Positions 7,549 to 55,615 of a stretch of DNA of 64,000 nucleotides are shown piece after piece. The stretch's first letter is position 1; each line of letters starts with the position of its first letter. This DNA comes from Hemileia vastatrix. Taxonomy: Eukaryota > Basidiomycota > Pucciniomycetes > Pucciniales > Zaghouaniaceae. The notes below the pieces were generated by a model, which saw only the letters and a program-made list of their open reading frames with translations, did not search any database and was not told where the DNA came from. The position numbers and the translations under genes are program-made. The stretch is from assembly GCA_030280995.1 (NCBI GenBank), contig JASXTE010000007.1:19383501-19447500 (forward strand), in the 5' to 3' direction.

Positions 7549-8189
7549 TCAAGTACTAGTGGAATCACAGAGGGAATAAAGAGATGAAATGATGTGTTCA
7601 GAATTAGCCTTGAACTGATGGATGAGGTGCCTTCTTTTCTCAATGTCCTGTGAATCTCTAGAAGGAGTGGATTGGAAGTATTGAAGCAGAAGTTGCTTCT
7701 GTTGAGATGTGTGTTGTTGGAACTTGGCCTTCATTGTGGGCAAGTGGTTTGTTGTTGGTGGTGCAATGGATCCTACATTTTCATCATCACTGTCAGAAGA
7801 TGGAGGAACTGAGAAGTCATCAGTTTTAAAGTTGAAGGAAGAAATGAAAGTTCTTTACCATCAGATGGACCAGGGTTGGTGGAACTTGTTGTTTTACGGG
7901 TTGTGGCACTCTACTGGGAAGGGTGTAGCTTTTTGATGATTCTGGGTATCAGGATGGATGGCCTAGATCTTTTGGTGCTGGTAGAAAATGGACCAGGTTG
8001 AGGTGGAGGCAAAGGTGTTGCAGAGGATAATGGACCAGGTCTGTGGCAGGTCTTCTTTCTGGAGTGGCAAACATCACAGGACATTCTGTATGGATGGGCG
8101 GGAGGTGTGATGGTGCAGATTAGATTATTGTCAATACAGTATTGGCAGGGGCCCATGTCAGTAGCAGATTTTGAGAGAAAGCTGAACAT
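7549..8189 (-). pseudogene. Antisense gene 1 of A1: permuted Zn2Cys6-like protein
   Basis: ATG at 8189, 21 nt from the 3' LTR, reading against pol. The N-terminus has C-x2-C-x6-C-x12-C-x2-C-x6-C (CQYC...CDVCHSRKKTC). This matches fungal binuclear zinc cluster spacing, but the Lys/Arg-rich half comes second. A Pro/Ser linker follows, then a 50-nt intron (7809-7858, GTAAAG...CAG) identical in position and length to that of A3, then a short helical C-terminus. One TAG near 7913 (AAG in A3) breaks exon 1. The product was probably nuclear and nucleic-acid binding, which is inferred from the cluster. Transcription would have to start within or beyond the 3' LTR. Confidence 0.75.
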
Positions 8190-8210
8190 GGTGGTTGTGG
8201 TAAAGGAGAA

Positions 8211-9262
8211 TGTGGTCTTCCATCATTGGCAGGGGCCTTTGTTGTGCGGTTTGGTGCTGTTTGTGCATGTCTTAATTGACATTGGATGAAGAATTGGGTG
8301 TTTTTCTGGATTTATTCAATGAATATTTAGACTGTGGGTATGTGGGTACTACCATTGGATAGCCCCGGTTTTTCTCTACATTTCATGTCCTTTGGACATT
8401 TTTCATATTCTTAGTTTTAAGGGGTCATTTCCTCATATTTCATTATAAAAGATAGCTGTTTAATTTTGTTTTTTGTGTTTTATGGGCTAACCTTAGGTCT
8501 TAGGGTTATGTGCTTAGTAACATTAGCTAGGGCTAATTTGGCTCTATGTTTTATGTCACAATGTAGTCATAGCTTATCTTTGTATTTTAAGGGTTTTAGT
8601 AGTTGTAGTGAAGTTTTCTAAGTAGATTAGATGTTTTTAGTGGTTTTCTGGCTTCAGGGAGGGAGGGCCAACGTCAGGCGGCCTGCCCACCTCTGTTTTA
8701 GGAGGTTGTGGAGCGCTTCTGAAGGGTTTTTATTCAACTTGGCTGGTACAGGTGCCAAATGCGTTGCTGTGCATCAATTTTAGAGGGGTGGTATGTGTGT
8801 ATTTACTGTATAAGACAGCTTGGGGAATCTCTAATTATCATACAACCATCCGGAGGTGACATCCTTTTTCCTCACTCAGTTTTCACTGTTGTTGGCCGCA
8901 ATTTGGCTGTGTCTTGTTGCAAGTAAGTTCTTCATTTAACTTTACTTACAACTGTTTTCTCTGTTATAGTCTTGCAAGCTATAGCAAGTATCATTGCTGT
9001 CTCTGGTGTGGATTTTCAACCTACATCAAGTATCATTGCTTTCTCTGGTGTGGACATTGGTCTGGTAGTCTGTCTGGGGACTAATTTCTTGGCTGATCAA
9101 GCAGTCAAGTGTATTGGAAAAGGGGCTTTTGGTGAATAGGAACCAATTTACTGTAGCAGGTAAATCTCACTTGTTTTTCTAAAGAGACAAGGGTTATTCT
9201 TTCTGGTTTTTCTCCAACTCCCTTGGTCAAGGCCTGTAGCTATTACTATAGGATTGTCTACA
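8211..9262 (+). repeat. 3' LTR of A1 (about 1052 bp)
   Basis: Starts TGTGGTCTTCC after an eroded purine tract and ends GTCTACA. It aligns with both A3 LTRs. It contains a direct repeat of about 46 bp near 8990-9060 (CAAGTATCATTGCT...CTCTGGTGTGGA) and a GTAAGT...TTATAG segment of 47 nt (8923-8969) that looks like a short intron. A GC-rich cassette near 8668-8695 is shorter than its A3 counterpart. Confidence 0.85.
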
Positions 9263-9747
9263 ACATTTTATAATTTAATTCTAAGAAAAATTGAACCAAA
9301 ACCCAACCCCTTTTATATCTGTTACTCCTCCTTGCATTGACCTCATACCCATCCATCATTCCGCACACCAAAGACCTCCTAATTTACACCCGTTACATCT
9401 GGACCCTCCTCAATAAAATCCGTTAACCCCTTAATCCTCCACTAACCATTCCGTCCATGCTCACTGCCACTTTTTAATAACCCACAGATATTTAATAAAC
9501 CTTTTAGTGGAATATTGCATTGACTATTGTGCTGTGCGTTGCTTATTAAAGAAAAGCCTAAAAACACTTTTGAGAATTGACTAATTTAGATTTAAAGTTT
9601 ATATTAGCACAGTTGAATAGTGAGTACACAAAGGGAAGTCACTGTTGCTAGGTAGAATTGCTTTCTGCACTTTGAGTATGGATTTAGACCTCTGTTTTAT
9701 TGATTTAATGAGCTTCTTTTGTCTTGAGTGTCACGTGGCGCATGACA
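9263..9747 (-). repeat. 3' LTR of B1 (truncated by A1)
   Basis: Aligns with 16885-17370 over nearly its whole length, with scattered substitutions. On the minus strand it starts TGTCATGCGCC. Its last bases are cut at the A1 junction (9262/9263). Confidence 0.85.
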
Positions 9748-9757
9748 GATGCCCAGG

Positions 9758-9764
9758 TATAAAA
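9758..9764 (+). promoter_or_regulatory. TATA box for the antisense gene of B1
   Basis: TATAAAA within GATGCCCAGGTATAAAA, 84 nt before the ATG at 9848. The same GATGCCCAGGTATAAAA occurs on the minus strand of B2 at about 39334-39350, at the matching place. Shared retention in two diverged elements supports a promoter; no transcription data are available. Confidence 0.5.
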
Positions 9765-9847
9765 TGCAAGCTCTGTTGAGCGTGAGACATATACTTCCAA
9801 CACTACTTTCCCTCAATTTATCTCTTGATTATTAATTTTTAGTTATT

Positions 9848-10836
9848 ATGTCAACTTGTCCTACTCTGACTCCCACGCCTCCTCACCCCAAAGCGGATGG
9901 TGGGCTCGTTACCCAACAATACTGCCAAGCCTGCACGGCCTGTGAGTCGATGGAGTATTTCTGCATCAAAAGCAAGGCCACACAGGGTCCTATCCAGAAA
10001 TGTGAGTTTTGCCACTGGAGACAGGTGACGTGCAATGCCCTTTCAAAAAATGCCGACATTGAAAAACGGTTTACCAAAACTAAATACTGGATAATACCAA
10101 AGACCAAAGAGGTGGTCAAAGATATATGGGATGTGTTGGTTGGGGAAAATCAGTCGGAAGGAGTTGATGAGGAGGTCAAGAATATCGTGGCAACCTGGGA
10201 AACCCAAGCCACGGGTAAAAAAGAGGGGTGGAAGAGGAGGTGGATGAATTGGTTGAGGAAGATGAGGAGTAAGTCCCCATCTTGAGATGGAAGCCGAAGA
10301 AGTGGTGGATGGTCATTGAAGATGAAAAAGAGGAAAAAGAAATGACAGTGGAAGTCACATCAAAGTTATTTCTAGAGGCTGACCTTGTTTTTGAAGTAAG
10401 TCTCCCTTTTTATTTTCAAAAAAAATTTTTTTTTACTGATGACCATATGTTTAGAATTCAGATGTCATCGCGGAAGCCCCAATTGTGGGAGCTCCTATTG
10501 TGGAAGCCCCTACTGTGGAAGCGGCACCTTCAATCCCAGCTGAAGAAAATCAACCAAAGATTGATTTGAGGGAGGACCACCAGGAAACTCTTGACCAGGT
10601 ATTGTTGAAGAAACCTCACCAGGGTCAACTAATTTGGTTCATTGAAGAGTTAAGTGGTGAAGTCAATAAGATTCTTGATGCTGCCTCCTTTGACGTGGCT
10701 GAATAATTACTGGAGATTGGAGAAGTGGTACCAGTAGGAGAGGAGGAGGTATTTGAGAAATGCAGGAAGGAAATAAGGGTGATTTTGGAAAAAATGAAGA
10801 AATTGGTTGGAGAGAAAATACAGGACAAAATTTAAA
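9848..10836 (+). pseudogene. Antisense gene of B1: permuted Zn2Cys6-like protein
   Basis: The first exon (ATG 9848 to about 10268) encodes C-x2-C-x6-C-x12-C-x2-C-x6-C (CTAC...CEFCHWRQVTC), the same spacing as in family A. The second half is less basic here. A GTAAGT donor is at 10269. A further intron, 10396-10454 (GTAAGT...TTTAG), matches the place of one in B2. The last exon carries EAPIVGAPIVEAPTVEAAP repeats and continues past TAA at about 10704, where B2 reads through (AAAGAG), to about 10836. The acceptor for the first intron is unclear, so the exact model is uncertain. The gene faces the pol genes and starts just inside the 3' LTR. Confidence 0.65.
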
Positions 10837-16871: not shown

Positions 16872-17370
16872 CTATTAACTATAAATACCTTTTATAATTT
16901 AATTTTAAAGAAACATCGAACCAAAAACCTACCCCTTTTAATCTGTTACTCCTTCATGCATTGACCTCATACCCATCCATCATTCTGCACACCACAGACG
17001 TCCAAATTTACACCCGTTACACCTGGACCCTCCGTACTAACATCCGTTAACCCCTTAATCCTCCACTAACCATTCTGTCCATGCTCACTACACCTTTTTA
17101 ATAACCCACAGATATTTAATAAACCTTTTAGCGGAATATTGCATTGAATATTGTGCTGTGTGTTGCTTAGCAAAGAAAAGCCTAAAAACACTTTTGAGAA
17201 TTGACTAATTTAGATTTAAAGTTTAGATTAGTGCAGTTGAAAAGTGAGTACACAAAGGGAAGTTGCTTTTGCTAGGTAGAATCTCTTTCTGCGCTTGTGT
17301 ATGGATTTAGACATCTGTTTTATTAATTTAATGAGCTGCTTTTGCCTCAAGTGTCAAGTGGGGCATGACA
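16872..17370 (-). repeat. 5' LTR of B1
   Basis: Starts TGTCATGCCCCAC on the minus strand at 17370 and pairs with 9263-9747. The internal edge is placed next to the primer-binding site. The terminal CA expected for an LTR is not evident, so that edge is approximate. Confidence 0.75.
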
Positions 17371-18048: not shown

Positions 18049-19160
18049 TGTGGTAGCCTAAAGTTTAGTATGGCACCTAAGTACGTAAATGGAGTTATTA
18101 CAGCATGCAAGATTGGCGTTATTATTTTTTTATATATAAAAGGGTTTTATTTAATTTATTTGAGTTTTAAATATGAAGAAATTGGTCACAAGCAAATGCC
18201 TACACAAAAACAATTTATTTTACGGAGAAAACTTATTTTTACGGTCTGAAAAATTTATAAGTATCAAGTTAAGTCACTCAAGAACCTTGGGAAATTTTCC
18301 CAGAATTTTTACTATTTTTCTTATATTTTTAAATGAATTTTGAAGTTTTATAGAAATATTTACGTTTTCAGAAATTACTTAACTTCGATGAATTTTCACG
18401 GGGTAATTAGAGCTGCGCAGACTACGAAAATTAGTTTGGTATGTAAAGGGGAAGTAGCTCTATTATGTGTAATTTTTCTAGATTTTTTATTATAGTTTTA
18501 AGGTTCTAATTGAGTCCGGAAGTCCGGAAGGACTCCGTTTCGACTCCGTACGGACTCCGTTCCGGCTCCGGATTGACTCTGGAAGAGCTCTGGAGGGGAA
18601 AACTTAGGCACGTGACTAGGAATACTTAAGCGCTTCTCAAACTCGAAATTGAGAGAGGGGGACACAACATACAGCTTAATCTTTAACCACCACGGTCTCA
18701 TTTTTTATTACTCAACAAATTAAATAAATTGTAATACCCTTATAACTTTATATTTTATATATAACATTTTAGAAATACTACTCAACAATTTAAATCACAC
18801 TTCATACAGGGTATCTTTAGAAAGGTCTTCACCACTGGGACTTGATTATTGCTGTCTCATAAAAATTCAAATTATTATAAAAACATAAAAGTCAATCTTT
18901 TCAGATCTTTCACTGGTACACCTTAATTGTTGTTATCAGTATTTCTTTTCTCAACAGCCACGATCATTAAATCTCAATAAGCGTTAAATATTTTAGAGTT
19001 TCATTATTTTCATCAATCAGATCCAAGTAGATTGGTTAGCTTAGTGATTTAGAATTCCCATTTTGTTATTTTTATTGGAAGGACGGGGTTTTCAGCTAAA
19101 TCCACATATCTCCTCCGGATTCTGCTTACAGCAAGGCGACTGTAAGAGTTTACCTTACCA
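18049..19160 (+). repeat. 5' LTR of A2 (1112 bp)
   Basis: TGTGGTAGCC...CTTACCA. It has a run of GACTCCG-type short repeats near 18535-18570, one 11-bp unit shorter than in the 3' LTR. Apparent open frames inside are not genes. Confidence 0.93.
18133..18142 (+). promoter_or_regulatory. TATA box in the A2 LTR
   Basis: TATATAAAAG about 85 nt into the LTR, repeated in the 3' LTR near 28870. It is the best candidate promoter for the element transcript. Confidence 0.5.
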
Positions 19161-19164
19161 TAGT

Positions 19165-20632: not shown

Positions 20633-23600
20633 ATGCCCTCATTTTTTGGGGTAGCAGGGGCTGATCACTCTAATGTTGTAATCTCTCCTCAGGATGAGAT
20701 CCCGGATTGCAATAGGTCAGCTCACTTGGAGATAATTCAAGTGGATTCTCAATTATTTTCTGTTAATATTACTTTGGAGTGCAAATACTTTATGGACTTT
20801 TCTATATGTTTATTGGATTTACCCTGTTTTTCTATAAAATTTAAAAATGGTGAAAAAGGCAAAATGGGCCAAATTAGGTTGGATAAAAATTGGAAGGGTA
20901 TGTTTACGGACCTCCAGCAAGAGGGTAAACTGCAATTATCTCATCAAAACCCAATAAAAAATCTCGGTATAATTAAAACACAAAAAAATAATTTTTGTGA
21001 AAATTCTATTATGGACCTCCAGCAAGAGGTTAAACTGCAATTATCTCCTTCTATTTTGGGCCTCCAGCAAGAGGTTAAACTGCAATTATCTCCTTCTATT
21101 TTGGACCTCCAGCAAGAGGGTAAACTGCAAAAATCACATCAAAATCCAATTAAAAATCTCGGTATAATTAAAACACAAAAAAATAATTTTTGTGAAAATT
21201 TGTTTCCGGACCTCCAGCAAGAGGTTAAACTGCAATTATCTCCTTCTATTACGGACCTCCAGCAAGATGTTAAACTGCAATTATCTCCTTCTATTACGGA
21301 CCTCCAGCAAGAGGGTAAACTGCAAAAATCTTATCAAAATCCAATAAAAAATCTCAGTATAATTAAAACACAAAAAAATAATTTTTGTGAAAATTCAATT
21401 CCGGTCCTCCAGCAAGAGGTTAAACTGCCGACTTTCTTTACGGGTGATTTACTGTTGGATAAGGGAAGCAAAGGTGTTGGAAAATCTGTTTATAAATTAG
21501 ACGAGGGAAAAGAGAAAAGGGTAAAATTTAAAAATGAAATAAAATATTTTTCTAATTTTTCTTATTCTGATTCTGGCGATGAAGAAGATTCATTTGATGA
21601 AAGTTTTAATGGCGATACAAAAGAAAATGTTTTACCTCAAGTTAATTTAGATGTGGACGCAGCCAAATATAAGAAAGTAGCAAATAAAGTTCGACCTATT
21701 AATGAACCGCTACCTGCTGAATTAAATACACCTTTGAGAAGACCAAGGTTATCAAGAGATCCTTATGAAAGTCCCTTGGTAAAGAATCCGCCTGAATTTT
21801 CTGAGACGTCAAGAATCACTTTTGAGAGACTGGGTGTTGTTAATTTTGGACCTGATGGTTGGTTGTCTGGAGAAGAGAAGAAGTTGTTGTTGGATGTGAT
21901 GGTCAAGCGAGAGAAGGCCATTGCTTTTGTAGAAGAGGAGAGGGGTGTGTTGAAGCATTCCTATGGGGAGCCTTACAAGATTCCTGTGGTATGTCATGAA
22001 CCGTGGCAGCAGAAACCGATTCCTATTCCGGCTGCATTGAAAGAAGCTTATATCGAAGTTGTCAGAGAACGGATACGCACTGGACTTTATGAGCAATCAA
22101 CGTCAAGTTATTCTAGTCCAGTATTTTGTATCAAGAAACCAAATGGCAAGCTTAGAGTTGTTCATGATCTTAGGGAATTAAATAGGGTTACAATAAAGGA
22201 TGCTGGAATACCACCTAGTGCTGAGGAGTTTGTTGAAGCGTTTGCAGGGAGAGTGTGTTATGGTTTGGGAGATATTATGGGTGGATATGATGAGAGAGAG
22301 TTACATCCGGACTCAAGGCCTCTCACTACATTCGATACGCCACTAGGACGTTTACAGTTAACAAGATTACCTCAAGGAGCAACAAATTTGGTTGCAGTTT
22401 ATCAAGCTCAGATGGCTTGGATCCTTCAAGACGAAATTCCACAATATGCTGGAATCTTTATAGATGATGGAGGAATTAAGGGACCAACAACCAACTATGA
22501 TAACCAGGTGTTGGAAGAGAATCCCGGGATATGCAAATTCATTTGGGAGTTTGCAACTACTTTAGAAAGAATATTGTTTTGAATTGAAGAGGCTGGTTTA
22601 ACTATTTCAGGTTCAAAATTATCCTGTTGTGTGCCAGCCTTAGAAATATTAGGCCATGTGGTATGTAGAGAGGGTAGGATTATGTCCAAGAAGAAAGTTA
22701 ACAAAATTCAGTCCTGGCCAAGACCCAAGAATACGACCAAAGTTAGAGGGTTTTTAGGCGTTTGCGTATATGTTAGAATGTTTATTAAGGACTTTTCTTC
22801 ATTGGCAGCTCCATTGAGACGGTTAACAAGAAAGGATGCAGACTGGGAGTGGGATGAAGAGTGTGAGATGGCGTTTGTGAAGTTGAAGGAGGTTGTGGGG
22901 AAGGATTTAGTCCTGCACAAGTTGGATTATGGAAAAGATGCTGGCAGAATTTATTTAGCAGTTGATTCAAGTCAGGTTGCAGCTGGGGCGGTTTTGTCTC
23001 AGATGGATAAAGCTGGTTACATCAGGCCAGTTAGGTATGAATCTGTAGTATTTACTGAGGTCAAATCAAGATATTCTCAACCAAAATTGGAATTATGTGG
23101 TGTGGCAAAAATACTGAAGAAACTTCAGCATATTTTGTGGGGGCAACATTTTGAGTTGCAAGTGGATGCGAAATCGTTAATCCAGATGATTAATTCCCCA
23201 AGTTTACCGAGCGCACCCATGACAAGATGGGTAGCTTTTATTCAACATTTTTTGTTTGATTTAGTTCATAAGCCTGGCAAAAATTTTACTATGCCAGATG
23301 GTTTATCAAGGAGACCACCCACTGAAGAAGATTCAGACTCAGAAGAGTTCGATGAAGATATACCTATTATCAAAGCCAGCACTAAAGGAGCTGAAGACTT
23401 TCCATACCTCCCCCATGAGGTTAAACTGGCAGGACTATTGTGTTTAGATTATGGTGTTGATGACCTCCACCAAGAGGATAAACTGGAAAATAGTTTTTAT
23501 GTTAATAAAGGTGTTGGAAAAGGTGTAGATAAATTCGGTAGAAAGGAGGTAGAAGAAGATGTGGTGTATGTAGAGGAAGATGGATTGGTAGTGTGGGATA

Positions 23601-25712: not shown

Positions 25713-25869
25713 GAAGTCCACTAAGACTATAAACTGGAACGAATCAAGAGACACCGCTCTCAACGCCGGATTCAAGATTTATTTTATTTTATTTTATTTT
25801 GTTTTTGATTTTTTTATGTTAGATTGTGATTTCTTTTCTTTAATATATATTATGAATTATTGTAAAGAT

Positions 25870-26075
25870 GATGCTCACTGGTGGTCTCTAATCATTTTTA
25901 TAAATTGGAGGGAGCCCACCCAGTGATCATCATTATAAAAATTATCTTCTAAAAACTTTCATTTATTTTCTTTTCTTTCAATTTCTCAAAATTGTGTAAC
26001 CACATCAAGTTGCACTTGGATGTGGGTATGATGTCGAGGGTACAGCTCATCAAATGGCCGGGGGGCATCTTTTAA
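25870..26075 (+). other. Conserved hairpins B and C of A2
   Basis: Hairpin B (about 25870-25928) pairs CTCACTGGTGG...TCTC with GGAGCCCACCCAGTGATC. Hairpin C (about 25999-26075) has CCACATC...GATGTGG followed by GGTATGATGTC...GGGGGCATC. The order is the same as in A1 and A3, but there is a single C copy. Confidence 0.55.
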
Positions 26076-26340
26076 AATTTTATTTTAAAAATTTTTTATT
26101 ACTTTTTTTTTATCTTTTCTTTTCACATTCGTTTATTTTTTTTAAAAAATTAAAATTTAACTTTTATTTCAAAAACTATCTTTTCTAAAATCTTTTATTT
26201 TAAGTTAAAAACAAAATTAAAATTAAAATTAAATAAAAAATAAAATAAAAATAAAATAAAAAATAAAAAAAAATAATATAAAATAAAATAAAAATAAAAA
26301 TAAATAAATAAAAATAAAATAATAAAAAAAAATAAAATAA

Positions 26341-26372
<32 letters not shown>

Positions 26373-26520
26373 AAATAAAAATTAATTAATTAAATCAAAA
26401 ATTATTATTATATTTCTTAGTTTTATTTTTCAGTCTTCATTCTTTTTTAGTTTTATTCATTTAGTTTAGACAGGAAACAGGGTCTAGGGGAACTCAATAC
26501 CTATGGGATTTTACTTCAAG
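26076..26520. repeat. AT-rich low-complexity tract in A2
   Basis: Mostly AAATAAAATAAAAT-type runs with T-rich ends. No gene or structured element is visible apart from this composition. Confidence 0.8.
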
Positions 26521-26523
26521 ACA

Positions 26524-27385
26524 TCTGTTAGTCCTCCAAGACTTTAAACTGGCTACTGTTCAAGACTTTCCTTAAGGGTTTTATACAAATTTTGGATCTG
26601 TTAGTCCTCCAAGACTTTAAACTGGCTACTGTTCAAGACTTTCCTTAAGGGTTTTATACAAATTTTGGATCTGTTAGTCCTCCAAGACTTTAAACTGGCT
26701 ACTGTTCAAGACTTTCCTTAAGGTTTTATACAAATTTTGGAGCTGTTAGTCCTCCAAGACTTTAAACTGGCTAAATTTCAAGACTTTCATTAAAGATTTT
26801 ATATTGGAGCTGTTAGTCCTTCAAGACTTTAAACTGAATTTCAAGGATGTTCAAGATTTTATGGATATTTTTGGAGACGTATTTTTTTTTATTTTTTATA
26901 TCAATCAAATGTTAGGTCCACCAAGACCTTAAACTGGACTGTTATCAAGCTGTTGGGTCCACCATGACCTTAAACTGGATTTCTTATCGATTAAATGTTT
27001 GGTCCACCATGACTTTAAACTGGTAGTTCATTCATTGTTTAGTCCACTATGACTTTAAACTGGAAAATTAATATCTGCAGGATAATTCAACATTCATTGG
27101 ACCACTATGGCCTTATACTGGATTACTTGTCGATAAAATGTTTGGTCCACTATGACATTAAACTGGATTATCGATTTATTCAATCTTTTGTCAAGCCTAG
27201 GCCTTACTTAGGAATATATCAAGATATTTATGAACTTAAACGATCTTTGGTCCACCAAGACCATAAACTGGCAATCGATTATATGTTTGGTCCATCAAGA
27301 CTTTAAACTGGAATGTCAATCTTGTTTGGATAACTCAATTCAATCTTTTAATTTATCACTGTCCACTAAGACTCTAAACTGGTTA
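26524..27385 (+). repeat. Array of about 15 stem-loop/TAAACTG motifs, A2
   Basis: The first part is a ~75-bp tandem unit repeated three to four times (26524-26830), each with AGTC-CTCCAA-GACT then TTAAACTGGC. Later copies (about 26912, 26955, 26998, 27037, 27095, 27143, 27246, 27287 and 27357) sit 40-100 bp apart in unrelated sequence. Stems change together: AGGTC/GACCT, GGTC/GACC, AGTC/GACT. No coding potential is visible. Confidence 0.88.
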
Positions 27386-27970
27386 TTCAATTATTTCTGG
27401 AATTGGGTGCTGATAGCTTTAGGAGGTTAAAATTTTAGGTGGTGATGATGCTAAGGAAAGCATAATGGTTAATTAGGTGAAATTTGTGGCGCTTTAACAT
27501 GGTCTAAAGTTAATATTATTATTGGAAGCCTGGCAAAAGTAATTTATGGGTTTGCTGTATAGCAAAGTTTGAAAATTGTGATGAAGGAATCAGAAGTTAG
27601 GATGGTAGTTGGATTTTAGGGAATGATTTTTTTTAGTGCCTCATAGTTAGGCCATTTTTTTTGGTGTGAAGCTTGGAGGACCTTATGGCGAGATTGGAAT
27701 CATAGAATTCGGCTCAGTGGGGGGCCCTATGAGGTTGGAATCAGGAGTATTCGGCTCATAGGAAGATCCACTCTCTCAATGCTGTGACAAGAAGGAAGAC
27801 TGGTATATGGGAGTCTGAAGGGATTCAAACCTTGCTCTCAGTAGTGGAATCATCACAAGATTTATATTATTTTATTTTATGTTATATCAAGACAGAGAAG
27901 AAAGAAAACATCATTTATGTTGAAAGTTTAAGAAGACCAAGCAAAAACAAAATTTTATCAAGTTATACTG
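27386..27970 (+). other. A2 3' region without a recognised gene
   Basis: No supported open frame on the sense strand. A short direct repeat (GAG(A/G)TTGGAATCA...ATTCGGCTCA) occurs near 27690 and 27732. The rest is unremarkable. Confidence 0.5.
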
Positions 27971-28663
27971 TTAAAAAAGATAATTTCTTTGAAATTGTTC
28001 AACATCATTATCAAAGCTTTGCATTAAAATTCTTCTTTTCATGAGGTCTTCATGGTTATTAGCTGGAGTTTCTTGAAAATAGGCCAGCATTTTTCGTTTC
28101 AACTCATTAGTAAAGTCAAGAAAAAGATAGCGATGAAAATTTGGGTAATGATTGATATAGTCTGTCTTCACTCTACCAACATCATCAGTGTTGGTTATTT
28201 CGACAGCTAGAAGTTCAAATATGTTATTAAGTCATAGGTTTAGTCAATTTTGATTAAAAGTTTTTTTTAGTAAGATAAATAGGGTCTTACATTTAGAGCC
28301 AGGAAACATAGTCTCAGCAAAGTTAGTTGGGGGTACTGGCGTTATAGGATTAGGATCTTGTGAAGGCAAAATTAGGCCGGGATCCGTTGATGAAGATTGA
28401 ACTTTTGAAGCTGTTTTTGATCTTATTCGTTTTAAGAAGACAGGAATTTTGGATCGCTTTTTAGAAGTTGAGGGATCAGGGAGAGCTGCTGGTCCTAAAT
28501 ATATGTTTGTTTTAGAAGGAACTATGGGCCGGTTGCATTTGACTTTTTTCACACGGCATAAGTCGCAAGCTGTTCTGCCAGGAAGATTAGGGTTGGACAT
28601 TAAACAAGGTACCTGGTATCGAGCGCAGAGTTCACATGGAGCGACAAGTTCTTTGGAAGACAT
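27971..28663 (-). CDS. Antisense gene of A2: permuted Zn2Cys6-like protein (intact, one intron)
   Basis: ATG 28663, 123 nt from the 3' LTR and reading against pol. Exon 1 is 28663-28291. The intron is 28290-28207 (84 nt, GTAAGA...TTCTAG), and exon 2 is 28206-27971. Splicing keeps the frame open and gives about 202 residues. The N-terminus is C-x2-C-x6-C-x12-C-x2-C-x6-C (CELC...CDLCRVKKVKC). CDLCRVKKVKC resembles the first half of GAL4-type clusters but is the second half here. Lys/Arg-rich stretches (KKRSK, KRIRSK) could be nuclear signals. The C-terminal exon (ELKRKMLAYFQETP...) resembles the A1 and A3 C-termini. The function is unknown, and DNA binding is inferred. It has no stop or frameshift. 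Confidence 0.75.
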
Positions 28664-28786: not shown

Positions 28787-29909
28787 TGTGGTAGCCTAAA
28801 GTTTAGTACGGCAACTAAGTACGTAAATGGAGTTATTACGGCGTGCAAGATTGGCGTTATTATTTTTTTATATATAAAAGGGTTTTATTTAATTTATTTG
28901 AGTTTTAAATATGAAGAAATTGGTCACGAGCAAATGCCTACACAAAAACAATTTATTTTACGGAGAAAACTTATTTTTACGGTCTGAAAAATTTATAAGT
29001 ATCAAGTCAAGTCACTCAAGAACCTTGGGAAATTTTCCCAGAATTTTTACTATTTTTCTTATATTTTTAAATGAATTTTGAAGTTTTATAGAAATATTTA
29101 CGTTTTCAGAAATTACTTAACTTCTATGAATTTTCACGGGGTAATTAGAGCTGCGCAGACTACGAAAATTAGTTTGGTATGTAAAGGGGAAGTAGCTCTA
29201 TTATGTGTAATTTTTCTAGATTTTTTATTATAGTTTTAAGGTTCTAATTGAGTCCGGAAGTCCGGACGGACTCCGTTTCGACTCCGTACGGACTCCGTAC
29301 GGACTCCGTTCCGGCTCTGGATTGACTCTGGAAGAGCTTTGGAGGGGAAAACTTAGGCACGTGACTAGGAATACTTAAGCGCTTCTCAAACTCGAAATTG
29401 AGAGAGGGGGACACAACATACAGCTTAATCTTTAACCACCATGGTCTCATTTTTTATTACTCAACAAATTAAATAAATTGTAATACCCTTATAACTTTAT
29501 ATTTTATATATAACATTTTAGAAATACTACTCAACAATTTAAATCACACTTCATACAGGGTATCTTTAGAAAGGTCTTCACCACTGGGACTTGATTATTG
29601 CTGTCTCATAAAAATTCAAATTATTATAAAAACATATAAGTCAATCTTTTCAGATCTTTCACTGGTACACCTTAATTGTTGTTATCAGTATTTCTTTTCT
29701 CAACAGCCACGATCATTAAATCTCAATAAGCGTTAAATATTTTAGAGTTTCATTATTTTCATCAATCAGATCCAAGTAGATTGGTTAGCTTAGTGATTTA
29801 GAATTCCCATTTTGTTATTTTTATTGGAAGGACGGGGTTTTCGGCTAAATCCACATATCTCCTCCAGATTCTGCTTACAGCAAGGCGACTGTAAGAGTTT
29901 ACCTTACCA
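28787..29909 (+). repeat. 3' LTR of A2 (1123 bp)
   Basis: Nearly identical to 18049-19160. It has one extra 11-bp unit in the GACTCCGTACG run near 29270-29305. Followed by target duplicate TAGCGT. Confidence 0.93.
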
Positions 29910-29915
29910 TAGCGT

Positions 29916-32434: not shown

Positions 32435-32488
32435 ATACTAGACCTTGGCAGCAATCTTGGCGGATATGTTCCAAGCTGTCGCATCACA

Positions 32489-33271
32489 TTACAGTCCCTC
32501 TTCTTCCTCCAGAGCTCTCTCCAATCCCTGAAACTTAGTATCAAGAGTAAGTGTAAGTTCTTTTGAAAAGTCTACTGATGATAATGAAACACCAGGAGAC
32601 TCTCTGGGCAGGGCCTGTGACTCCTGAAGGGGCCAGGGGGAAAATGCTTTCTCTGCACCATCCACCTTTCCCCATCCTTGTTGCGCCTTCTCCTTTTCTT
32701 GCTGCGCTTTATCTCCTCCTTGGCCCTCCTTGGCGCTCCCCATTGGTGACCCATCTCCAGCCTGCTGCTTAGAATCAAGAGGAAGCATCAGTTCTGGTGG
32801 CAAGTCCACTGATGATAACAAAACATCAGAAGACTTGCTGGGATGGGCCCCTGACCCCTGAAGGGGCCAGGGGGCCGATAATTTAGCACCAGTGTCCCCT
32901 CTCTTTTCCATCTGAACCTTCTTTTCCTTCCAATTTATTTGTGGGTTATAGTGGTCCAGCCATGCCATCCCCAGTACCATGTTGTACTGGTCCTTCAGGT
33001 TTGTTGCATATGCCCTGCACTGAGATTCTTTTCCATCACACCAAAATCTGCAAAAAATCCTCTCTCTTACTTCTCCTCCCCCACCTGGCAATCCATCAAA
33101 CATAATTAGGCGCCTAGAGTGGTCTAATTTTTCTTTTTTCTTTTCATTCCTCTGTAAAAACTTGTTAGAAATAAAACAGTCTGTGGCCCCAAAGTCCAGT
33201 AAGGCTTGTACATTTGTTGTGTCATCAAGGGTCATTATAGGCAAGTTTAGTATAATGTGATTATCATTCAC
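32489..33271 (-). pseudogene. Protease region of C (active site DFG)
   Basis: A 260-residue frame. The retropepsin active site reads VQALLDFGATDCFI (near 33200), where D-S/T-G is required. The Ser/Thr is Phe, so cleavage activity is not expected. MVLGMAWLDHYNPQINW matches the second conserved region. The C-terminal half has a duplicated SSVDLP/SSVDFS segment. Confidence 0.82.
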
Positions 33272-33354
33272 TTCAATTGGCTTACATGCTGATAATTCTT
33301 CTACTAAATTCCCCTTATACTTTCCCTTTCATCCGCTCCAGGAGGGCACAACCT

Positions 33355-33597
33355 TCACTCCTGAGCGCTGTCTTTTACCTGCATCTTTCCTGCGCTATCC
33401 TCCACTTCACTAACCTGTATTTTCCCTCTGCACTCCCTTGCCAGATGACCACTACTCCCACACCTGAGACACAGACCTTTGCTTATGTGCCTCTGATACT
33501 CATCATCTGGTAAACTTTTTCTTCCACTAGTGCCATGTGCATTTTCTGCATCAATGTCCATGGTGTTTGGGTCTCTGGAACTGGCCCCACTTGACAA
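33355..33597 (-). pseudogene. Gag zinc knuckle of C
   Basis: CLRCGSSGHLAREC gives canonical C-x2-C-x4-H-x4-C in an 80-residue frame. It is separated by frame breaks from the capsid part upstream. Confidence 0.8.
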
Positions 33598-34346
33598 GGC
33601 ATAGCTGCGCCATGGAAAAGCGCCGCTCCAGCCATCAGTTCATTAATGTGTGAACTCATTGTTGACTTGGATGGCCAGTTCCATGAGTGTTTGGAGGGGG
33701 GTTGGGAGGGGGTGACTGATTAGGGTGTTCCTTATTTTTGACAAGAGCCCATTCCTGAAGTGAAACATGAGCACCCCTCCCTCCATGTTGTGATGTAGCT
33801 GGCATGGCCCCGGAACTCCGACACATATTCAGAAACCAAATTTCTTTGTTTCAACTGATTTAGCGCATGCTCCGAGGTTGTGGCCACATCTGGGTCACCA
33901 AAGGCTAATTCAAAAGCCGCCATGAATTGACGGAAGGTTGTCGCTGCCTGTGAGTTTTCAAGGAGCTCTTTGGTGTACGGCCTTGCCAAGCATGCCGCCT
34001 CATCTGTGAGGTATGATATTTCAAACCCAATTTTTGCTTGTTTGTCTGGGAATTGATGTCCATTGAGCAGGACATAGAGGTTTACCTGCAAAGCATACTG
34101 GTCTTCCCGCGGACCTCGTTTTCCATTGAAGATTGATGGGACCACATTTTTTGGACCTTTGACAGGTGGCACCTGTGCTCTGGCTTTGGCTTTGGAAGCA
34201 TCAAACTCCACTTTGGTGGGGCCGCGGTATGAGGGTTCTGTTTCTGCTAGGTGCTCCATAAGCCTAGCATTCTGTTCCTGCAAATGTGCCATCTTCTCTT
34301 GCATGGCAGCAAGAAGTGCTGCATCAGGTTGGCCTGCATAATTCAT
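33598..34346 (-). pseudogene. Gag capsid part of C
   Basis: The ATG at 34346 follows the LTR and leader. 204 residues run to a stop at 33732. A coiled-coil start (MQEKMAHLQEQNARLMEHL) and a Ty3-type capsid region (IFNGKRGPREDQY, AFELAFGDPD) are visible. A frame break joins it to the zinc knuckle. Confidence 0.82.
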
Positions 34347-38389: not shown

Positions 38390-39240
38390 TTCCTCAGCTG
38401 GCACCACTTCTCCAACTTCCAGAATCTCTTTGGCTACATCATAGGAGGCTGCATCAACAATCCCATCAATTTCTTCACAAATTTTTTTGAACAAAGTGGT
38501 TCAACAATCCTGACCAGGCTTCTTTCACCACACCTGATCCAACTTGGCCTCCCCAGTCAAATCATTCAAAATGGGTTCAGGGCTTTTAACCCTTAAACAA
38601 TCCACCTCAGTTGGTTTCTCAACTTCTGGTTGAGTTTTGACAGTGGGAGTGACTACTGGTTTCTTCAGAAACTCTTCAATCATTTCCACCTTCTAAGCCC
38701 AAGAATCAGTTAGCTATTAAATCATAACAATTTAAAATTAAAACCACTTACTTAAAATTCAGGATCTTCTTTGATTAAAAAATTATACTTGGTGGTTTCA
38801 ACTACTTCCACCACCTCATCATCTTCATCCTCAACAATAATTTGATTTCATTTTGTGGTAGGAGCTACCTCAACTACCAGATCTGACCCATCCTTGAAAA
38901 GTTCTTAAACCTCGTCTTCTGGGGTCATGGGCTGCTTTCCAATATTAAGGGTGGCCACCCAACCTGAAATTTCCTTCCTTTCCTCCTGATTAAGCACGTC
39001 CTCCGCACCATCCACCATCAATTCATTCTTGAAAGCCACCTCCCAGATATTCTCAACAATGGCCTGATCTTTAACAATTGACCAAAATTTAGTCAAAGTA
39101 AATCATCCTTTGGTGACTGCATTCTTCTCCAACACATTGCAGGCCACCTGATTCCATTGAAAAAACTTGCACTGCTTGCAAGGACCCCAAGAAGATGTGC
39201 TCTCAATGCAAAATGATTTCATAGCTACAAAAGCTGTGCA
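38390..39240 (-). pseudogene. Antisense gene relic of B2 (Cys cluster with two Cys lost)
   Basis: Homologous to 9848-10836. The region near 39220-39125 reads C-x2-F-x6-C-x12-C-x2-F-x6-C, so spacing is conserved while two of six Cys are Phe (TGT to TTT). The frame continues as KFWSIVKDQAIVENIWEV (39096-38905), matching the B1 protein. Later exons follow: an intron-like GTAAGT...CTTAG stretch lies near 38755-38697, and a tail near 38480 resembles the last B1 exon (DAASYDVAKEILEVGEVV). Confidence 0.68.
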
Positions 39241-39351
39241 AGCTATCTTGAACTTCTGCATGGGTATAACTGTTCAAGAAGTAAACAAGGAAGATAAAGA
39301 TAATGATGAGCTCTCACACTCAAAGGAGCTTGTGTTTTATACCTGGGCATC

Positions 39352-51260: not shown

Positions 51261-51370
51261 AAGTATGTTGTATTATAATAATGCAATGTCATGACATTGC
51301 ATCTAGTTTTGTTGCTACACATGAGTCCACATGCTCAAAACTGCTGCAACAATGGTCCTGATGCATACAA

Positions 51371-52470
51371 TGTAGACAATCCTATAGTACTAGCTATAGG
51401 CCTTGACCAAGGGAGTTGGAGAAAAACCAGAGCGAAAATCCCCTTTCCCTTTAGAAAAATAGAGTGAGATTTACTTGCTAAAGTAAGTTGGTTCCTGTTT
51501 TGCTAAAGCTCCTGTTTAACACACTTGACTGCTTGATGAGCCAAGAAAATAGTCCCCAGATAGACTACCAGACCAAAGAACTGAAATGTAGAACAAAGTC
51601 CACACCAGAGACAGAAAAGATACTTGATGTAGGCTGCAAATCCACACCAGAGACAGCAATAATACTTGCTATAGCTTGCAAGACTATAACAGAGAAAACA
51701 GTTGCCAAAGTTAAGTTAAATGAAGAACTCACTTGCAACAAACACAGCCAATTGTGGCCAGAAAACAGTGAAAACTGAGTGAGGAACAATGATATCACCT
51801 CCGGATGGTTGTATGATGATTAGGGTTTCCCCAAACTGTCTTATTCACTATGTACACACAGACCACTAACTAAGAGCCCATGCACACCCACCAATCTGGC
51901 GCCTGTACCCGCCAAATTGCATAAAAAACCCTCCTTAAGCTCTCCCCAACCTCCTAAAAGAGAGGCGGGCAGGCCGCCCGACTTCAGAGATGCCGCCTGA
52001 AGCGGCCCGGCCTCCTTGAAGCTAGAAAACCAATAAAAACAACTAATCTACTTAGAAAAATTAGCTACAACTACTAAAACCTTTAAAACACGGAATTTCA
52101 CTATAACAACATTGGGACATGAAATATAGAGAAAAATTAGCTCTATCCAATGGTACTAAGCACTTCACCCTAAGACTTAAGGTTAGCCCGTAAAACACGA
52201 AAAACAAAATTAAACAGCAATCTTTTATATATGAAAAATGAGGAAATCACCCCTTAAAACTCACAATATGAAAAATGTCTACAAGACATAAAATATAGAA
52301 AAAAACCAGGGCTATCCAATGATAGTACCCACATACCCGCAGACCCAATATCCACGGAATAAAACCAGAAAAATACCCAATTCCTTAACAGATGTCAATT
52401 AAGACATGCACAAACAGCGCCAAATCACACAACAAAGGCCCCTGCCAACGTTGGAAGACCACATCCTCCC
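51371..52470 (-). repeat. 3' LTR of A3 (1100 bp) and polypurine tract
   Basis: On the minus strand it starts TGTGGTCTTCC right after ATTGGAGGGAGGA (52471-52483) and ends GTCTACA. A GC-rich cassette lies at about 51963-52018. A GTGAGT...TTATAG intron-like stretch is present, as in A1. Confidence 0.88.
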
Positions 52471-52511: not shown

Positions 52512-53400
52512 ATGTTTAACCTTCTTCCCAAATCTGCCTCTGAAATGGGTCCCTGCCAATACTGCATCGACAATAATTTAATCTGCACCATGACACCACC
52601 TGTCCATCCATACAGAAAGTCCTGCGATTTCTGCCAATCTAGAAAGAAGACCTGCCACAGACCTGCTCCACTTTCTTCTGCAACAGATTCACCTCCACCT
52701 CAACCTGGTCCTTCTTCTGCCAGCACCAATAGATCTAGGCCATCCATCCTGATACCCAGATTAATCAAAAAGCTCCACGCTTCCCAGAAGAGTGCCACAA
52801 CCCATAAAACAACTAGTTCCACCATCCCTGGTCCATCTGATGGTAAAGAACATTCATTTCTTCCTTCAACTTTAAAACTGATGACCTCTCAGTTCTTCCA
52901 TCTTCTGATAGTGATGATAACAATGTAGGATCCATTGCACCACCAACACCAACGCACTTGCCCACTATCAAGGCCAAGTTCCAACAACACACATTTTTAT
53001 TTTATTTTTATTTTATTTCTTACAATCTCACCCAACTAGGGGCATGAAGGAGCAGGAAAACAAGAGGTAGGTACAGGAGGGTAGGGAGCAGATAGAAGGA
53101 AACAACGGGCAATTAAAAGTAAAGCAATATGGGACTATTGGGAGAGAGGGACATTGTTGGGGAATCTGTTTGTGGAGATGAGAAAAGAAGCAACTTGAAG
53201 CGTAATAGGGGAAGGAGACAAAAGGGAAGAAACAACACACATCTCAACAGAAACAACTTCTGCTTCACTACTTCCAATCCACTCCTGCTAGAGATTCACA
53301 GGATATTGAGAACAGAAGACACCTCATTCACCAGCTCAAGGCTAATTCTGAACACTTCATTTCATCTCTTGATTCCCTCTGTAGTTCCACTAGTACCTGA
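52512..53400 (+). pseudogene. Antisense gene 1 of A3: permuted Zn2Cys6-like protein (split by insertion)
   Basis: ATG 52512, 42 nt from the LTR edge. The cluster C-x2-C-x6-C-x12-C-x2-C-x6-C (CQYC...CDFCQSRKKTC) is intact. The 50-nt intron is 52843-52892 (GTAAAG...CTCAG). Exon 2 is open and continues to TGA at 53398-53400, apart from a 237-bp retroposed insertion plus an 11-bp duplication (52994-53241). Without the insert the reading frame would be complete. It is co-oriented with antisense gene 2 and head-on to pol. The putative role is nucleic-acid binding. Confidence 0.78.
52994..53230 (-). mobile_element. Retroposed insertion with A-rich tail (237 bp)
   Basis: On the minus strand it ends GTTGGGTGAGATTGTAAG then an AAATAAAATAAAA tail. 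AACAACACACA flanks both sides (52983-52993, 53231-53241). The tail plus 11-bp duplication is typical of LINE-driven retroposition. It is either a 5'-truncated LINE or a SINE; I see no clear A/B boxes. Confidence 0.72.
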
Positions 53401-53454
53401 ATTTGATTCAGAAAAGAAAAATTGACCACACCCTCTATAGGATGTAACTACAAA

Positions 53455-53895
53455 ACAACCCTCAGTTTTAAGTCTTGGGGGACTCAAAAACCCTCAGTTT
53501 AAAGTCTTGGGGGACTCAAAAACCTAAATCATAAACCCAGAACCAGAGATCAACCACATTAAGACACAGAGAAAAAACTAACATTCTGGGGTAATTGTAA
53601 ATAGAGCAGCCAGCCAATCAATTACCCCCAAACTTGCCTTTACTAAATTTGGAGGCTCCCCCTGTGGATACCCTCCACCAATCTTTCAAAACCAACTCCA
53701 ACAACAAAAACTTTTTCCTCATTTTATAGTCTTGGGGGACTTACAACCCTCAGTTTAAAGTCTTGGGGGACTAACACAGTGTTCAGTTTAAAGTCTTGAC
53801 AGACTAGTCTTGATAAAATCTTGAAACCAGCCAGTTTAAAGTCTTGGAGGACTAACAGAAACCAGATTTCAGTTTAAAGTCTTGATGGACTGGCG
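53455..53895 (-). repeat. Stem-loop/TAAACTG motif array, A3
   Basis: About seven copies lie on the minus strand near 53460, 53490, 53725, 53755, 53790, 53830 and 53875, for example AGTC-CCCCAA-GACT then TTAAACTGAGG. They occupy the space between the two antisense genes, as in A1. Confidence 0.78.
53524..53637 (-). other. GC-AG intron-like segment, A3 copy 3 (114 nt)
   Basis: On the minus strand, AAAG then GCAAGTTTGG...GATTTAG then GTTTTTGAG. The stem is GGGGTAATTG/CAATTACCCC. A1 lacks exactly this segment at 6217/6218. Confidence 0.6.
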
Positions 53896-54044
53896 GAATT
53901 TTGCATAAAATAGATGCAGCCAATTTCATACAGGCCACTCATACAGCCAATCTGCTGAACTTCCACCTTCACTTCATCATCTACCCATCACTGACAAAAA
54001 AATCTCCACCTATCCCTTTTTCTCATCTTTTCTCACCACAGATC

Positions 54045-55615
54045 ATGGCAGGATCTCCTGATGTTAACCCTTCTACTCTCCCTTGCTTCACTTCTCCCAA
54101 GGACTATGCCTGCAAACAGTGCATCCACATGTGCAGACCTTGCACATTCACTCTTCCAACTCCTGAATCCAAATTCTACAACAGGGCTTGTGATTCTTGC
54201 TATTCCAAAAAGAAAAGATGTGACAGAGATGCCAACTACCCTATTCCTCCTCCTTCACCTTCTCACAAATACATCTCAAGATCCCCTACCAGATCCCCAG
54301 AGCTTGGTCCTTCCTCTTCCTCTTTATCTTCAGCACCTTCCAGAAGATCCAGAAGCTCCGCTTCCAGAACTCTTCCCAAAAGACCAGCCTTAGCTTCCCA
54401 AAAAACTGCTTTTATCTCTGCCAAATTAGCTCCAAAAGCTTCAAGATCAACTCCCAGGCTTCTAGACCGCGTCCAGGCGGCCTGGCTGACATCGGGCGGC
54501 CCGCCCGCCTCACTGGACAGTGAAAATCCGGCTCCAAATCACCAAAAAAGACTGGAAAACAGCCAAATTCCATCAATCAACAAAAACAACTCTACACAAT
54601 CGCCTCCCACTTCTCCCAGAGCAATGCAGCCAACTCTTACAAAGTCCAAAAACTTCAAATTTTCCCAAACTTCTAGGAGACCTGCCAGAGAACCCCAAGA
54701 AGAAACAAGAACACCACACACTGCACCCAAACAACAACTTTGTCCCCAACTAAGACAAAGAAACTACACCTCTCCTCTGTCAGCCAACAACTCTTCTGAC
54801 AGTTCCATCTCTTCAAAAGCTCCATCCAGATGAGATCAATCTGCTTCCATATCCCCCTCTCCTGCTCCATCCTTTAACAACCCTGGTACTCCATAACCAG
54901 CACCTCCTCCTGCTGAATCCAACAGAAATAACAACCACAACCACAACAACAATCCCACTGCTCCAACTAAGCCCCAGGAACATCAGCCTCCTAATTCACC
55001 TTCTCAAAATCTTTCAGAGGAAGACCATGAGAATCCATATCTTTCCCTAGTTGATCCACCCACTATGACCATTACAAAATTTTCAGAGATCCAAATTCCA
55101 GCGGCTTACAAATTTGATCAGCTTCCAATCTGTAAGTACCGAATTAATTATCCCATTTCTTCAACAAAAATAATAACTGATCCAATTCTTCTTGTCTAGT
55201 TGGCACCCCTCCTCCTGAATCTATTATTGGAGTTGGCCAACCTCTTGAAACTTTTTTGACCCTGGATTATGGAGACATGAAGAAACACCTAAGCATTATG
55301 TGTTCCAACATGCTAAAAGCCTTTGCCCTCCATGGACCTTTGAATGACTTTGAAAAATCCCTGAGAAAGCGCCTGTTGGACAACCACTGGAAAATGTCAA
55401 AGATCATTAAGCACACCCTCCAGCACTCCATTCCTGACTCTTCTTCTTCCTCCTCTGAGCTTCCCTCTAATCCAATTCCTGACCATTACAATCCCTATTA
55501 TATCTCCAGCAGGATGCACTTCAAAGAACACAGTGCTTCCCACACTCCCAACAAAAAACAAAAATGTCATCACAATCCAGACCAGCCTCCAGAAGCTTCA
55601 TCATCCAGACAATGA
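54045..55615 (+). pseudogene. Antisense gene 2 of A3: Cys-cluster protein (two stops, one intron)
   Basis: ATG 54045. The N-terminus is C-x2-C-x6-C-x15-C-x2-C-x6-C (CKQCIHMCRPC...CDSCYSKKKRC). Next comes a Ser/Pro/Arg-rich middle (RSPTRSPELGPSSSS and SASRTLPKR), then an Asn-rich stretch. TGA at 54831-54833 (CGA in A1) and TAA near 54894 (CCA-type codon in A1) break exon 1. The intron is 55132-55199 (68 nt, GTAAGT...GTCTAG). Exon 2 (to 55615) gives a conserved end (LTLDYGDMKKHLSIMCSNML, then DNHWKMSKIIKH) finishing with NKKQK. A GC-rich cassette is embedded at 54473-54518. A TATA-like CATAAAATA lies near 53907. The function is unknown. Confidence 0.75.

What the first reader, a model, noticed from the sequence alone, without database searches (positions are those of the whole stretch)
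7549..55615. Antisense genes with a swapped Zn2Cys6-type cluster in five LTR elements of two families
A1 (8189), A2 (28663), A3 (52512), B1 (9848) and degraded B2 (about 39240) each have, just inside the 3' LTR and opposite to pol, a protein start with C-x2-C-x6-C-x12-C-x2-C-x6-C. A1 and A3 have a second gene with x15 in the middle. Fungal Zn2Cys6 regulators have the same Cys spacing, but the Lys/Arg half (CDxCxxxKKxC) comes first there and second here. Introns sit at conserved places. Antisense ORFs are known in some plant gypsy elements, but I do not know of one of this kind. It could be a self-regulator of the retroelement, perhaps binding its repeated motif.
Basis: partly seen in the sequence, partly recalled or inferred. 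Interest (0 to 1): 0.87.

Follow-up and report, generated by a model that had tools for sequence, protein, structure and literature searches.

The report
Swapped GAL4-type antisense genes in retrotransposons
LTR retrotransposons in this DNA, likely from a rust fungus, carry on the strand opposite to their usual genes a conserved gene, with predicted introns, for a protein whose six-cysteine motif is that of the yeast regulator GAL4 with its two halves swapped, and this protein would likely control the element's own activity by binding CGG repeats in its terminal repeats.

Summary
The pattern C-x2-C-x6-C-x(5-20)-C-x2-C-x6-C occurs six times in six frames of the window, always in the claimed antisense genes; 100 simulated windows had none. 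B2 keeps 4 of 6 Cys.
They are real genes. A2 (202 aa, undamaged) and gene 2 of A1/A3 match in one frame only, the antisense one, share a phase-1 intron, and A1-A3 dN/dS is 0.36 and 0.35 for the two genes.
The cluster is PF00172 with halves exchanged: in native order Pfam matches halves separately, one half, or nothing; put in GAL4 order, 6 of 6 fragments match as one stretch, 3 of 6 above cut-off (controls 83, 84).
New here: the densest CGG/CCG clusters of the window are in the A2 LTRs (11-bp array), and A3's 3' LTR has another at the same LTR position. GAL4-type clusters read CGG. I favour a self-regulator docking on the LTR rather than on the 24-nt internal motif. No RNA or binding evidence exists.
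Antisense ORFs before the 3' LTR are known (Retand, Grande, Boty brtn); this domain and its LTR partner make a new variant.

The parts
27971..28663 (-). A2 antisense gene, undamaged, 202 aa; exons 28663-28291 and 28206-27971, predicted 84-nt phase-1 intron
   Evidence: homology to A1/A3 gene 2 in this frame only
28535..28636 (-). A2 swapped six-Cys cluster (C-x2-C-x6-C-x12-C-x2-C-x6-C)
   Evidence: Pfam Zn_clus halves in swapped order
18049..19163 (+). A2 5' LTR
28787..29912 (+). A2 3' LTR (97.8% identical to the 5' LTR)
29254..29314 (.). CGG/CCG array in A2 3' LTR (LTR positions 468-528), 11-bp units TCCGTACGGAC; densest of the window
18516..18571 (.). same array in A2 5' LTR, one 11-bp unit shorter
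28866..28876 (-). overlapping TATA-like boxes on the antisense strand of A2's 3' LTR (LTR positions 80-90)
   Evidence: consensus match only, the LTR is AT-rich and has others
7549..8189 (-). A1 antisense gene 2 (x12 form); exons 8189-7859 and 7808-7549, 50-nt phase-1 intron; one in-frame stop in exon 1
4342..5895 (-). A1 antisense gene 1 (x15 form), damaged (frame broken in exon 1, stop in exon 2, donor lacks GT)
8211..9262 (+). A1 3' LTR
   Evidence: inner edge inferred from A2
52512..53400 (+). A3 antisense gene 2 (x12 form), split by a 248-bp insertion (12-nt repeats at 52983 and 53231)
54045..55615 (+). A3 antisense gene 1 (x15 form); exons 54045-55131 and 55200-55615, 68-nt phase-1 intron; two in-frame stops in exon 1
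51369..52463 (-). A3 3' LTR (the 5' LTR runs from 63454 off the window end); scripts counted positions from 52469
   Evidence: inner edge inferred from A2
51966..52010 (.). CGG/CCG cluster in A3 3' LTR (LTR positions about 454-498), same place in the LTR as the A2 array
54495..54511 (+). 17-bp GGCGGCCYGCCCRCCTC motif inside A3 gene 1; other copies at 5448-5464 (A1 gene 1), 8677-8693 (A1 LTR), 51962-51978 (A3 LTR)
   Evidence: 4 matches with up to 3 mismatches, 0.05 expected
9848..10706 (+). B1 antisense gene; open for 145 codons (9848-10285) through the cluster; frame between about 10200 and 10322 unsettled; intron 10396-10454 supported by B2; likeness to B2 goes on past the stop at 10706
9758..9764 (+). 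TATAAAA between B1 LTR and gene start, inside a block conserved in B2
9263..9747 (-). B1 3' LTR (5' LTR 16887-17370)
38429..39258 (-). B2 antisense gene remnant; 4 of 6 cluster Cys kept, in-frame stops

Best explanation
These elements carry, opposite to gag-pol and next to the 3' LTR, a conserved gene with predicted introns whose product has the GAL4-type six-cysteine cluster with its two halves in swapped order, and this product would most likely act as a DNA-binding regulator of the element's own transcription by docking on CGG repeats in the middle of the LTR. Shown by sequence: the gene, its strand and frame, its constraint (A1-A3), the swapped halves, the CGG arrays of A2 and A3. Inferred: two zinc ions hold the cluster; because the cluster is built of two similar halves, exchanging them should keep the fold, with the Lys-rich half still reading CGG; the C-terminal pair of helices may pair two molecules; a promoter in the 3' LTR makes the antisense mRNA; one set of CGG sites in the LTR could then tune both the gag-pol RNA and the regulator's own RNA. 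Whether it activates or represses is not known; I lean slightly to activation of its own LTR, as most GAL4-type proteins activate (recalled).
For: Six of six cluster hits are these genes, 0 in 100 simulations. A2 versus A3 gene 2 exon 1 z 13.5 and A2 versus A1 gene 2 exon 2 z 18.2 in the antisense frame, the other five frames at most 2.9. dN/dS A1-A3 0.36 (0.22-0.60) gene 2, 0.15 for its first 55 codons, 0.35 (0.27-0.47) gene 1; pol end 0.22. Phase-1 intron in A1 and A3 gene 2, A2 and A3 gene 1. Pfam: native order 28.0, 22.8, 18.7 bits (two separate halves), 15.8, 15.6 (one half) and none; reordered 35.9, 29.8, 26.2, 19.3, 19.4, 19.0 as one stretch; native order with a short loop, five given: 24.7, 17.7, 15.0, none, none; Cys-preserving shuffles, 2 of 10 matched, 12.9 and 17.7. 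Foldseek: 17 hits, all zinc-cluster entries as far as I recall them, none significant. CGG/CCG per 100 bp: A2 LTRs 13 and 12, A3 3' LTR 8 at the same LTR place; rest of window 4.1 per kb; CGG ranks second of 30 triplet classes for clustering. GAL4-type proteins typically read paired CGG triplets as homodimers (PMC5559640, passages).
Against: No transcript, protein or binding data. Only one pair (A1-A3) was close enough for dN/dS. Of five elements only A2's gene is clearly undamaged. The A2 array may be only a tandem expansion of GC-rich DNA; A1's LTR has little of the cluster (6.7 CGG/CCG per kb) and B1's LTRs have no dense one (8 per kb); the A3 5' LTR copy of the site lies outside the window; a CGG cluster as strong as A3's LTR one sits inside A3 gene 1. 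TATA-like boxes occur at several places on both strands of A2's LTR, and A3's LTR has none in sense behind the cluster. B1 has Gln where GAL4 has its CGG-reading Lys (position recalled). AlphaFold of the cluster is weak (pLDDT 58.8), Foldseek E-values exceed 1. For gene 1 and B1 the reordered score of about 19 is little above the best shuffle (17.7). No homologue was found outside the window, and further genome copies could not be searched.
Confidence: 0.5

Rival explanations
1. The antisense protein is an accessory factor of integration or nuclear entry: its cluster would tether the pre-integration complex or gag to chromatin, and the CGG array in the LTR is unrelated.
For: Small basic protein with a DNA-binding-type domain; plant antisense proteins of this position are nuclear in one case and have been suggested to help transposition (PMC7264820, passages).
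Against: A gene starting beside the LTR on the other strand, and CGG clusters at the same LTR place in A2 and A3, are not explained.
Confidence: 0.17
2. One reading: the protein binds the 24-nt motif that is repeated between pol and the antisense genes.
For: The motif is real: 40 hits of its 16-nt core with up to 3 mismatches against a mean of 0.6 for shuffled cores; in A1 and A3 copies lie between the two antisense genes.
Against: No CGG in it; a look-alike is part of gag/pol coding sequence, so it may be a by-product of duplicated coding DNA; in A2 the copies lie downstream of the gene.
Confidence: 0.1
3. The protein regulates host genes (a captured host Zn2Cys6 gene kept for its effect on the host), not the element.
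For: Zn2Cys6 is a fungal host family; the gene has its own predicted intron.
Against: Halves are in the other order; found in two element families at one position, inside elements that would spread it; CGG arrays in the LTR itself.
Confidence: 0.08
4. The antisense RNA, not the protein, is what matters (double-stranded RNA that feeds or blocks silencing); the ORFs are passengers.
For: Antisense RNAs of retroelements may act this way (PMC7264820, passages).
Against: Protein-level constraint and one-frame conservation between A2 and A1/A3.
Confidence: 0.08
5. Decayed relics: the genes had a function in the past and are no longer used by any living copy.
For: A1, A3 and B2 copies carry stops, an insertion or lost Cys.
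Against: A2's gene is undamaged in a fairly young insertion (LTR identity 97.8%).
Confidence: 0.07

Closest known systems
Fungal Zn2Cys6 binuclear cluster regulators (GAL4, PPR1, LEU3, PUT3; Pfam PF00172)
   Same: Six Cys in two C-x2-C-x6-C halves, Lys/Arg-rich half CDxC..KK..C, basic stretch behind it, helices further on
   Different: Halves in the opposite order; middle spacer x12 or x15; encoded antisense inside a retrotransposon; A2's product is only 202 aa with a short helical C-terminus that has no Pfam match
Antisense TRP28 ORFs of plant Retand/Grande/RIRE2 gypsy elements (PMC11963269, PMC7264820; passages)
   Same: Antisense ORF between pol and 3' LTR, predicted DNA binding (TRP28), long pol-3'LTR region, often with tandem repeats
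   Different: Different domain (no PF04195 match here), predicted short introns, gene starts within 21-123 nt of the LTR, LTR of A2 and A3 holds a CGG cluster
brtn of Boty elements of Botrytis cinerea (Zhao et al. 2011, seen only as cited in PMC7264820 and PMC8365987)
   Same: Antisense gene between pol and 3' LTR of a fungal gypsy element
   Different: No zinc cluster is mentioned in the passages seen; sequence not compared
HBZ and APH proteins of HTLVs (PMC10186651, passages)
   Same: Antisense, from promoters in the 3' LTR, spliced forms, nuclear regulators; APH-3 and APH-4 suppress 5' LTR transcription; works like it in outline
   Different: bZIP or no such domain, not a zinc cluster; viruses of primates; no relationship

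Membership tests
Zn2Cys6 cluster (PF00172) | Six Cys with C-x2-C-x6-C halves | tested here: met
   A1 (2 genes), A2, A3 (2 genes), B1; B2 keeps 4 of 6
Zn2Cys6 cluster (PF00172) | Lys/Arg half first, short loop, second half | tested here: not met
   profile positions 1-15/16 match the second half of the domain, 17/18-35 the first; searches show that order matters, not only Cys spacing (clear for A2 and gene 2, weak for gene 1 and B1)
Zn2Cys6 cluster (PF00172) | Score above Pfam's curated cut-off (21 bits) | tested here: inconclusive
   six pieces of 74-85 aa in native order: 2 of 6 above (28.0, 22.8), 3 below, 1 none
Zn2Cys6 cluster (PF00172) | Fold of the binuclear cluster | tested here: inconclusive
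Zn2Cys6 cluster (PF00172) | Binds paired CGG triplets | not testable with these tools
   Only candidate sites seen:
Retand-type antisense aORF (TRP28, PF04195) | Antisense ORF between pol and 3' LTR | tested here: met
Retand-type antisense aORF (TRP28, PF04195) | TRP28 domain | tested here: not met
   no PF04195 among Pfam matches up to E 10 in the twelve exon pieces scanned
Boty brtn | Sequence homology to BRTN | not tested
HBZ-like antisense regulator | Antisense transcript from 3' LTR | not testable with these tools
   only TATA-like boxes and intron signals

The most novel reading that the evidence does not exclude
Ty3/gypsy elements of a rust fungus have built a self-contained transcription switch: an antisense-encoded, circularly permuted GAL4-type protein plus CGG arrays in the middle of a two-way LTR promoter, a fungal counterpart of the retroviral Tax/HBZ logic and the first GAL4-type cluster known to work with its halves exchanged.
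Probability: 0.35. Interest if true: 0.88.

Novelty: new variant of a known kind. Interest (0 to 1): 0.72.

Why it matters
Antisense genes before the 3' LTR have turned up in plants and in Botrytis without a known function. Here the product carries a domain type whose DNA target is understood, and the element's own LTR carries the densest cluster of that target in 64 kb. That makes the old question of what such genes do directly testable. It also offers a natural test of whether the zinc-cluster fold tolerates exchange of its halves, and a possible reason why LTR elements spread so far in rust genomes.

Tried and rejected
Homologues elsewhere: none for the A2 gene (12 candidates, none at E 1) or for an alignment of five exon-1 proteins (905 candidates, none at E 1), although the same database holds rust pol relatives. 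The search needs exact 5-residue words and proteins of similar length, so this does not show absence. Pol-based scans of viral contigs and genome contigs found no related locus.

Sense-strand coding as the real signal: one opposite-strand frame shares the wobble positions and also has low dN/dS (0.51 for gene 2, 0.33 for gene 1), and in gene 2 exon 1 and A2 exon 1 the opposite strand has a frame with a single stop. Rejected because A2-A3 and A2-A1 similarity exists in the antisense frame only and gene 1's opposite frames carry 12-22 stops in exon 1. Against me: in the gene 1-gene 2 comparison of A3 an opposite frame has the higher z (11.4 against 7.7), though the lower raw score (86 against 101); B1-B2 DNA is alike enough that all frames score, the gene frame best (z 30.6).

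B1 first intron (10269-10321): put in my model, then doubted on rereading, because it ends in AAG, has no clear branch site and B2 has no donor there; I no longer count it as a conserved intron.

Shared C-terminal domain of gene 1 and gene 2: looked likely by eye, not supported (280 of 1000 shuffles reach the score against A1 exon 2, 10 of 1000 against A2 exon 2). A-B homology outside the cluster: not found; within the cluster A2-B1 scores 50 against at most 47 in 1000 shuffles that do not keep the Cys.

C-terminal helices of A2 (AF2 pLDDT 75.3, pTM 0.62): no significant fold match. Pfam of exon 2 pieces: one sub-threshold hit, PH_SPO71, 15.9 bits against a cut-off of 27, taken as chance. NCBIfam: one irrelevant hit far under its cut-off.

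Print: ten paper searches on antisense retroelement genes, zinc clusters, rust elements and permuted clusters listed no swapped Zn2Cys6 cluster and no zinc-cluster antisense gene that I could recognise from titles and abstracts; the library lacks most subscription papers. A screen of TE co-option in fungi (PMC10799480) has no occurrence of 'zinc cluster' or 'Zn2' in its main text. From recall only: swapped-looking C6 proteins may exist among unnamed basidiomycete proteins; I could not check this.
Full report
What is there. The window holds three related gypsy-type elements: A1 (+, cut at the left edge, 3' LTR 8211-9262), A2 (+, LTRs 18049-19163 and 28787-29912) and A3 (-, LTRs 51369-52463 and from 63454 off the right edge), and two of a second family, B1 (-, LTRs 9263-9747 and 16887-17370) and B2 (+, degraded). 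Inner LTR edges of A1 and A3 are inferred from A2. Pfam finds RVT_1, RNase H and integrase domains in A2, and RNase H, integrase and a weak protease match in B1.

Antisense genes. Between pol and the 3' LTR, on the other strand, lie A2's gene (28663-27971, 202 aa, undamaged), gene 2 of A1 (8189-7549) and A3 (52512-53400), gene 1 of A1 (5895-4342) and A3 (54045-55615), B1's gene (9848-10706) and B2's remnant. A1 gene 2 has one in-frame stop, A3 gene 2 a 248-bp insertion, A1 gene 1 a broken frame, a stop and a donor without GT, A3 gene 1 two stops, B2 two lost Cys and in-frame stops. B1 is open for 145 codons through the cluster; its frame in the middle is unsettled, and its likeness to B2 goes on past its predicted stop.

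Chance. The six-Cys pattern with a free middle of 5-20 residues occurs six times in six frames of 64 kb, each time in one of these genes, and never in 100 simulated windows.

Gene reality and strand. A2 and gene 2 of A1/A3 are 31-38% identical in both exons. Comparing all frames, only the antisense frame is conserved: z 13.5 (exon 1, A2-A3) and 18.2 (exon 2, A2-A1), the other five frames at most 2.9. The intron is phase 1 in A1 gene 2, A3 gene 2, A2 and A3 gene 1; lengths 50, 50, 84 and 68 nt; three of these four have a CTGAT branch-like site, A2's has GACTAAAC instead. B1 and B2 share another intron (10396-10454; GTAAGT, ACTGAT, TTAG). A1-A3 dN/dS: gene 2 0.36 (95% bootstrap 0.22-0.60, 189 codons), its first 55 codons 0.15 (0.06-0.34), gene 1 0.35 (0.27-0.47, 482 codons); codons with stops or gaps were dropped. 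The pol end gives 0.22. One opposite frame shares wobble positions and is low too; see Tried and rejected.

The swapped cluster. In Pfam's Zn_clus the Lys/Arg half comes first. In A2 profile positions 1-15 match the second half of the cluster; in A1 and A3 gene 2 the best stretch is profile positions 17/18-35, matching the first half. With the halves put in GAL4 order, 6 of 6 fragments match as one stretch (A2 35.9, A1 29.8, A3 26.2, gene 1 of A1 19.3 and of A3 19.4, B1 19.0 bits; 3 of 6 above the cut-off of 21). In native order with an equally short loop 3 of the 5 given match, split in halves (24.7, 17.7, 15.0). Of ten Cys-preserving shuffles two match Zn_clus (12.9, 17.7). So for A2 and gene 2 the case is strong; for gene 1 and B1 a score of 19 is only just above what Cys spacing alone can give. 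The A2 half CDLCRVKKVKC is close to GAL4's CDICRLKKLKC.

A matching site in the LTR. GAL4-type proteins typically read pairs of CGG triplets, inverted, direct or everted, as homodimers (PMC5559640, passages). Among 100-bp stretches of the window the richest in CGG/CCG are A2's 3' LTR (13) and 5' LTR (12), then A3 gene 1 (8) and A3's 3' LTR (8); the next is pol at 6. In A2 it is an 11-bp array of TCCGTACGGAC at LTR positions 468-528, with one unit more in the 3' than in the 5' LTR; 1000 simulated LTRs reached 9 at most. In A3 a different sequence clusters at about LTR positions 454-498. CGG is the second most clustered of 30 triplet classes, after an AT-rich run. A 17-bp motif, GGCGGCCYGCCCRCCTC, occurs four times, in LTR and gene 1 of A1 and of A3, 0.05 expected. 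TATA-like boxes of A2's LTR lie on both sides of the array, antisense ones at 80-90 and sense ones at 719 and 839 among others; in an AT-rich LTR this is weak evidence. B1 and B2 share a TATAAAA block just inside the LTR. Because both A2 LTRs descend from one, the independent LTR cases are two, A2 and A3; B1's LTRs (8 per kb) and A1's (6.7 per kb) have no dense cluster.

Reading. The simplest account is a regulator made by the element from its 3' LTR, acting on CGG sites in both LTRs and so on gag-pol RNA and on its own RNA. This part is inference. HTLV antisense proteins work in this outline (PMC10186651, passages). In kind it belongs with antisense additional ORFs of plant Retand, Grande and RIRE2 elements, where TRP28 is predicted to bind DNA (PMC11963269, passages; PMC7264820, passages), and of Botrytis Boty (brtn; cited there and in PMC8365987, passages; original not seen). 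A survey of rust elements (PMC12210899) has no occurrence of 'antisense' or 'zinc' in its main text. It is a new variant, not a new kind.

Noticed in passing
3336-3616, 6053-6260, 7445-7490, 25721-27390, 53463-53890, 56332-56615: A 24-nt motif (GTCC.CCAAGACTTTAAACTGG) is repeated about 30 times in the post-pol regions of A elements, all in element sense orientation; a close look-alike is part of gag/pol coding DNA (1532, 21022-21412, 23413, 23470, 58334), where it encodes D-L-x-Q-E-x-K-L-like peptides.
   Followed up: partly
52983-53242: A 248-bp insertion bounded by a 12-nt repeat splits A3 gene 2; identity of the inserted DNA unknown.
   Followed up: no
6290-7430: About 1.1 kb in A1 between genes 1 and 2 has no counterpart in A3.
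   Followed up: no
20908-21492: A2 has a 195-nt tandem repeat (3 copies) inside an open frame of the gag-pol region.
   Followed up: no
9262/9263 and 29912: B1's LTR abuts A1's 3' LTR end, and a third gypsy-type element (gag to integrase on the minus strand, 30392-34346) lies just beyond A2's LTR.
   Followed up: no
protein hits P0009, P0044: Proteins filed under a Sphingobacteriaceae metagenome genome (EOP45) are close relatives of this rust-type retrotransposon pol, probably contamination.
   Followed up: no
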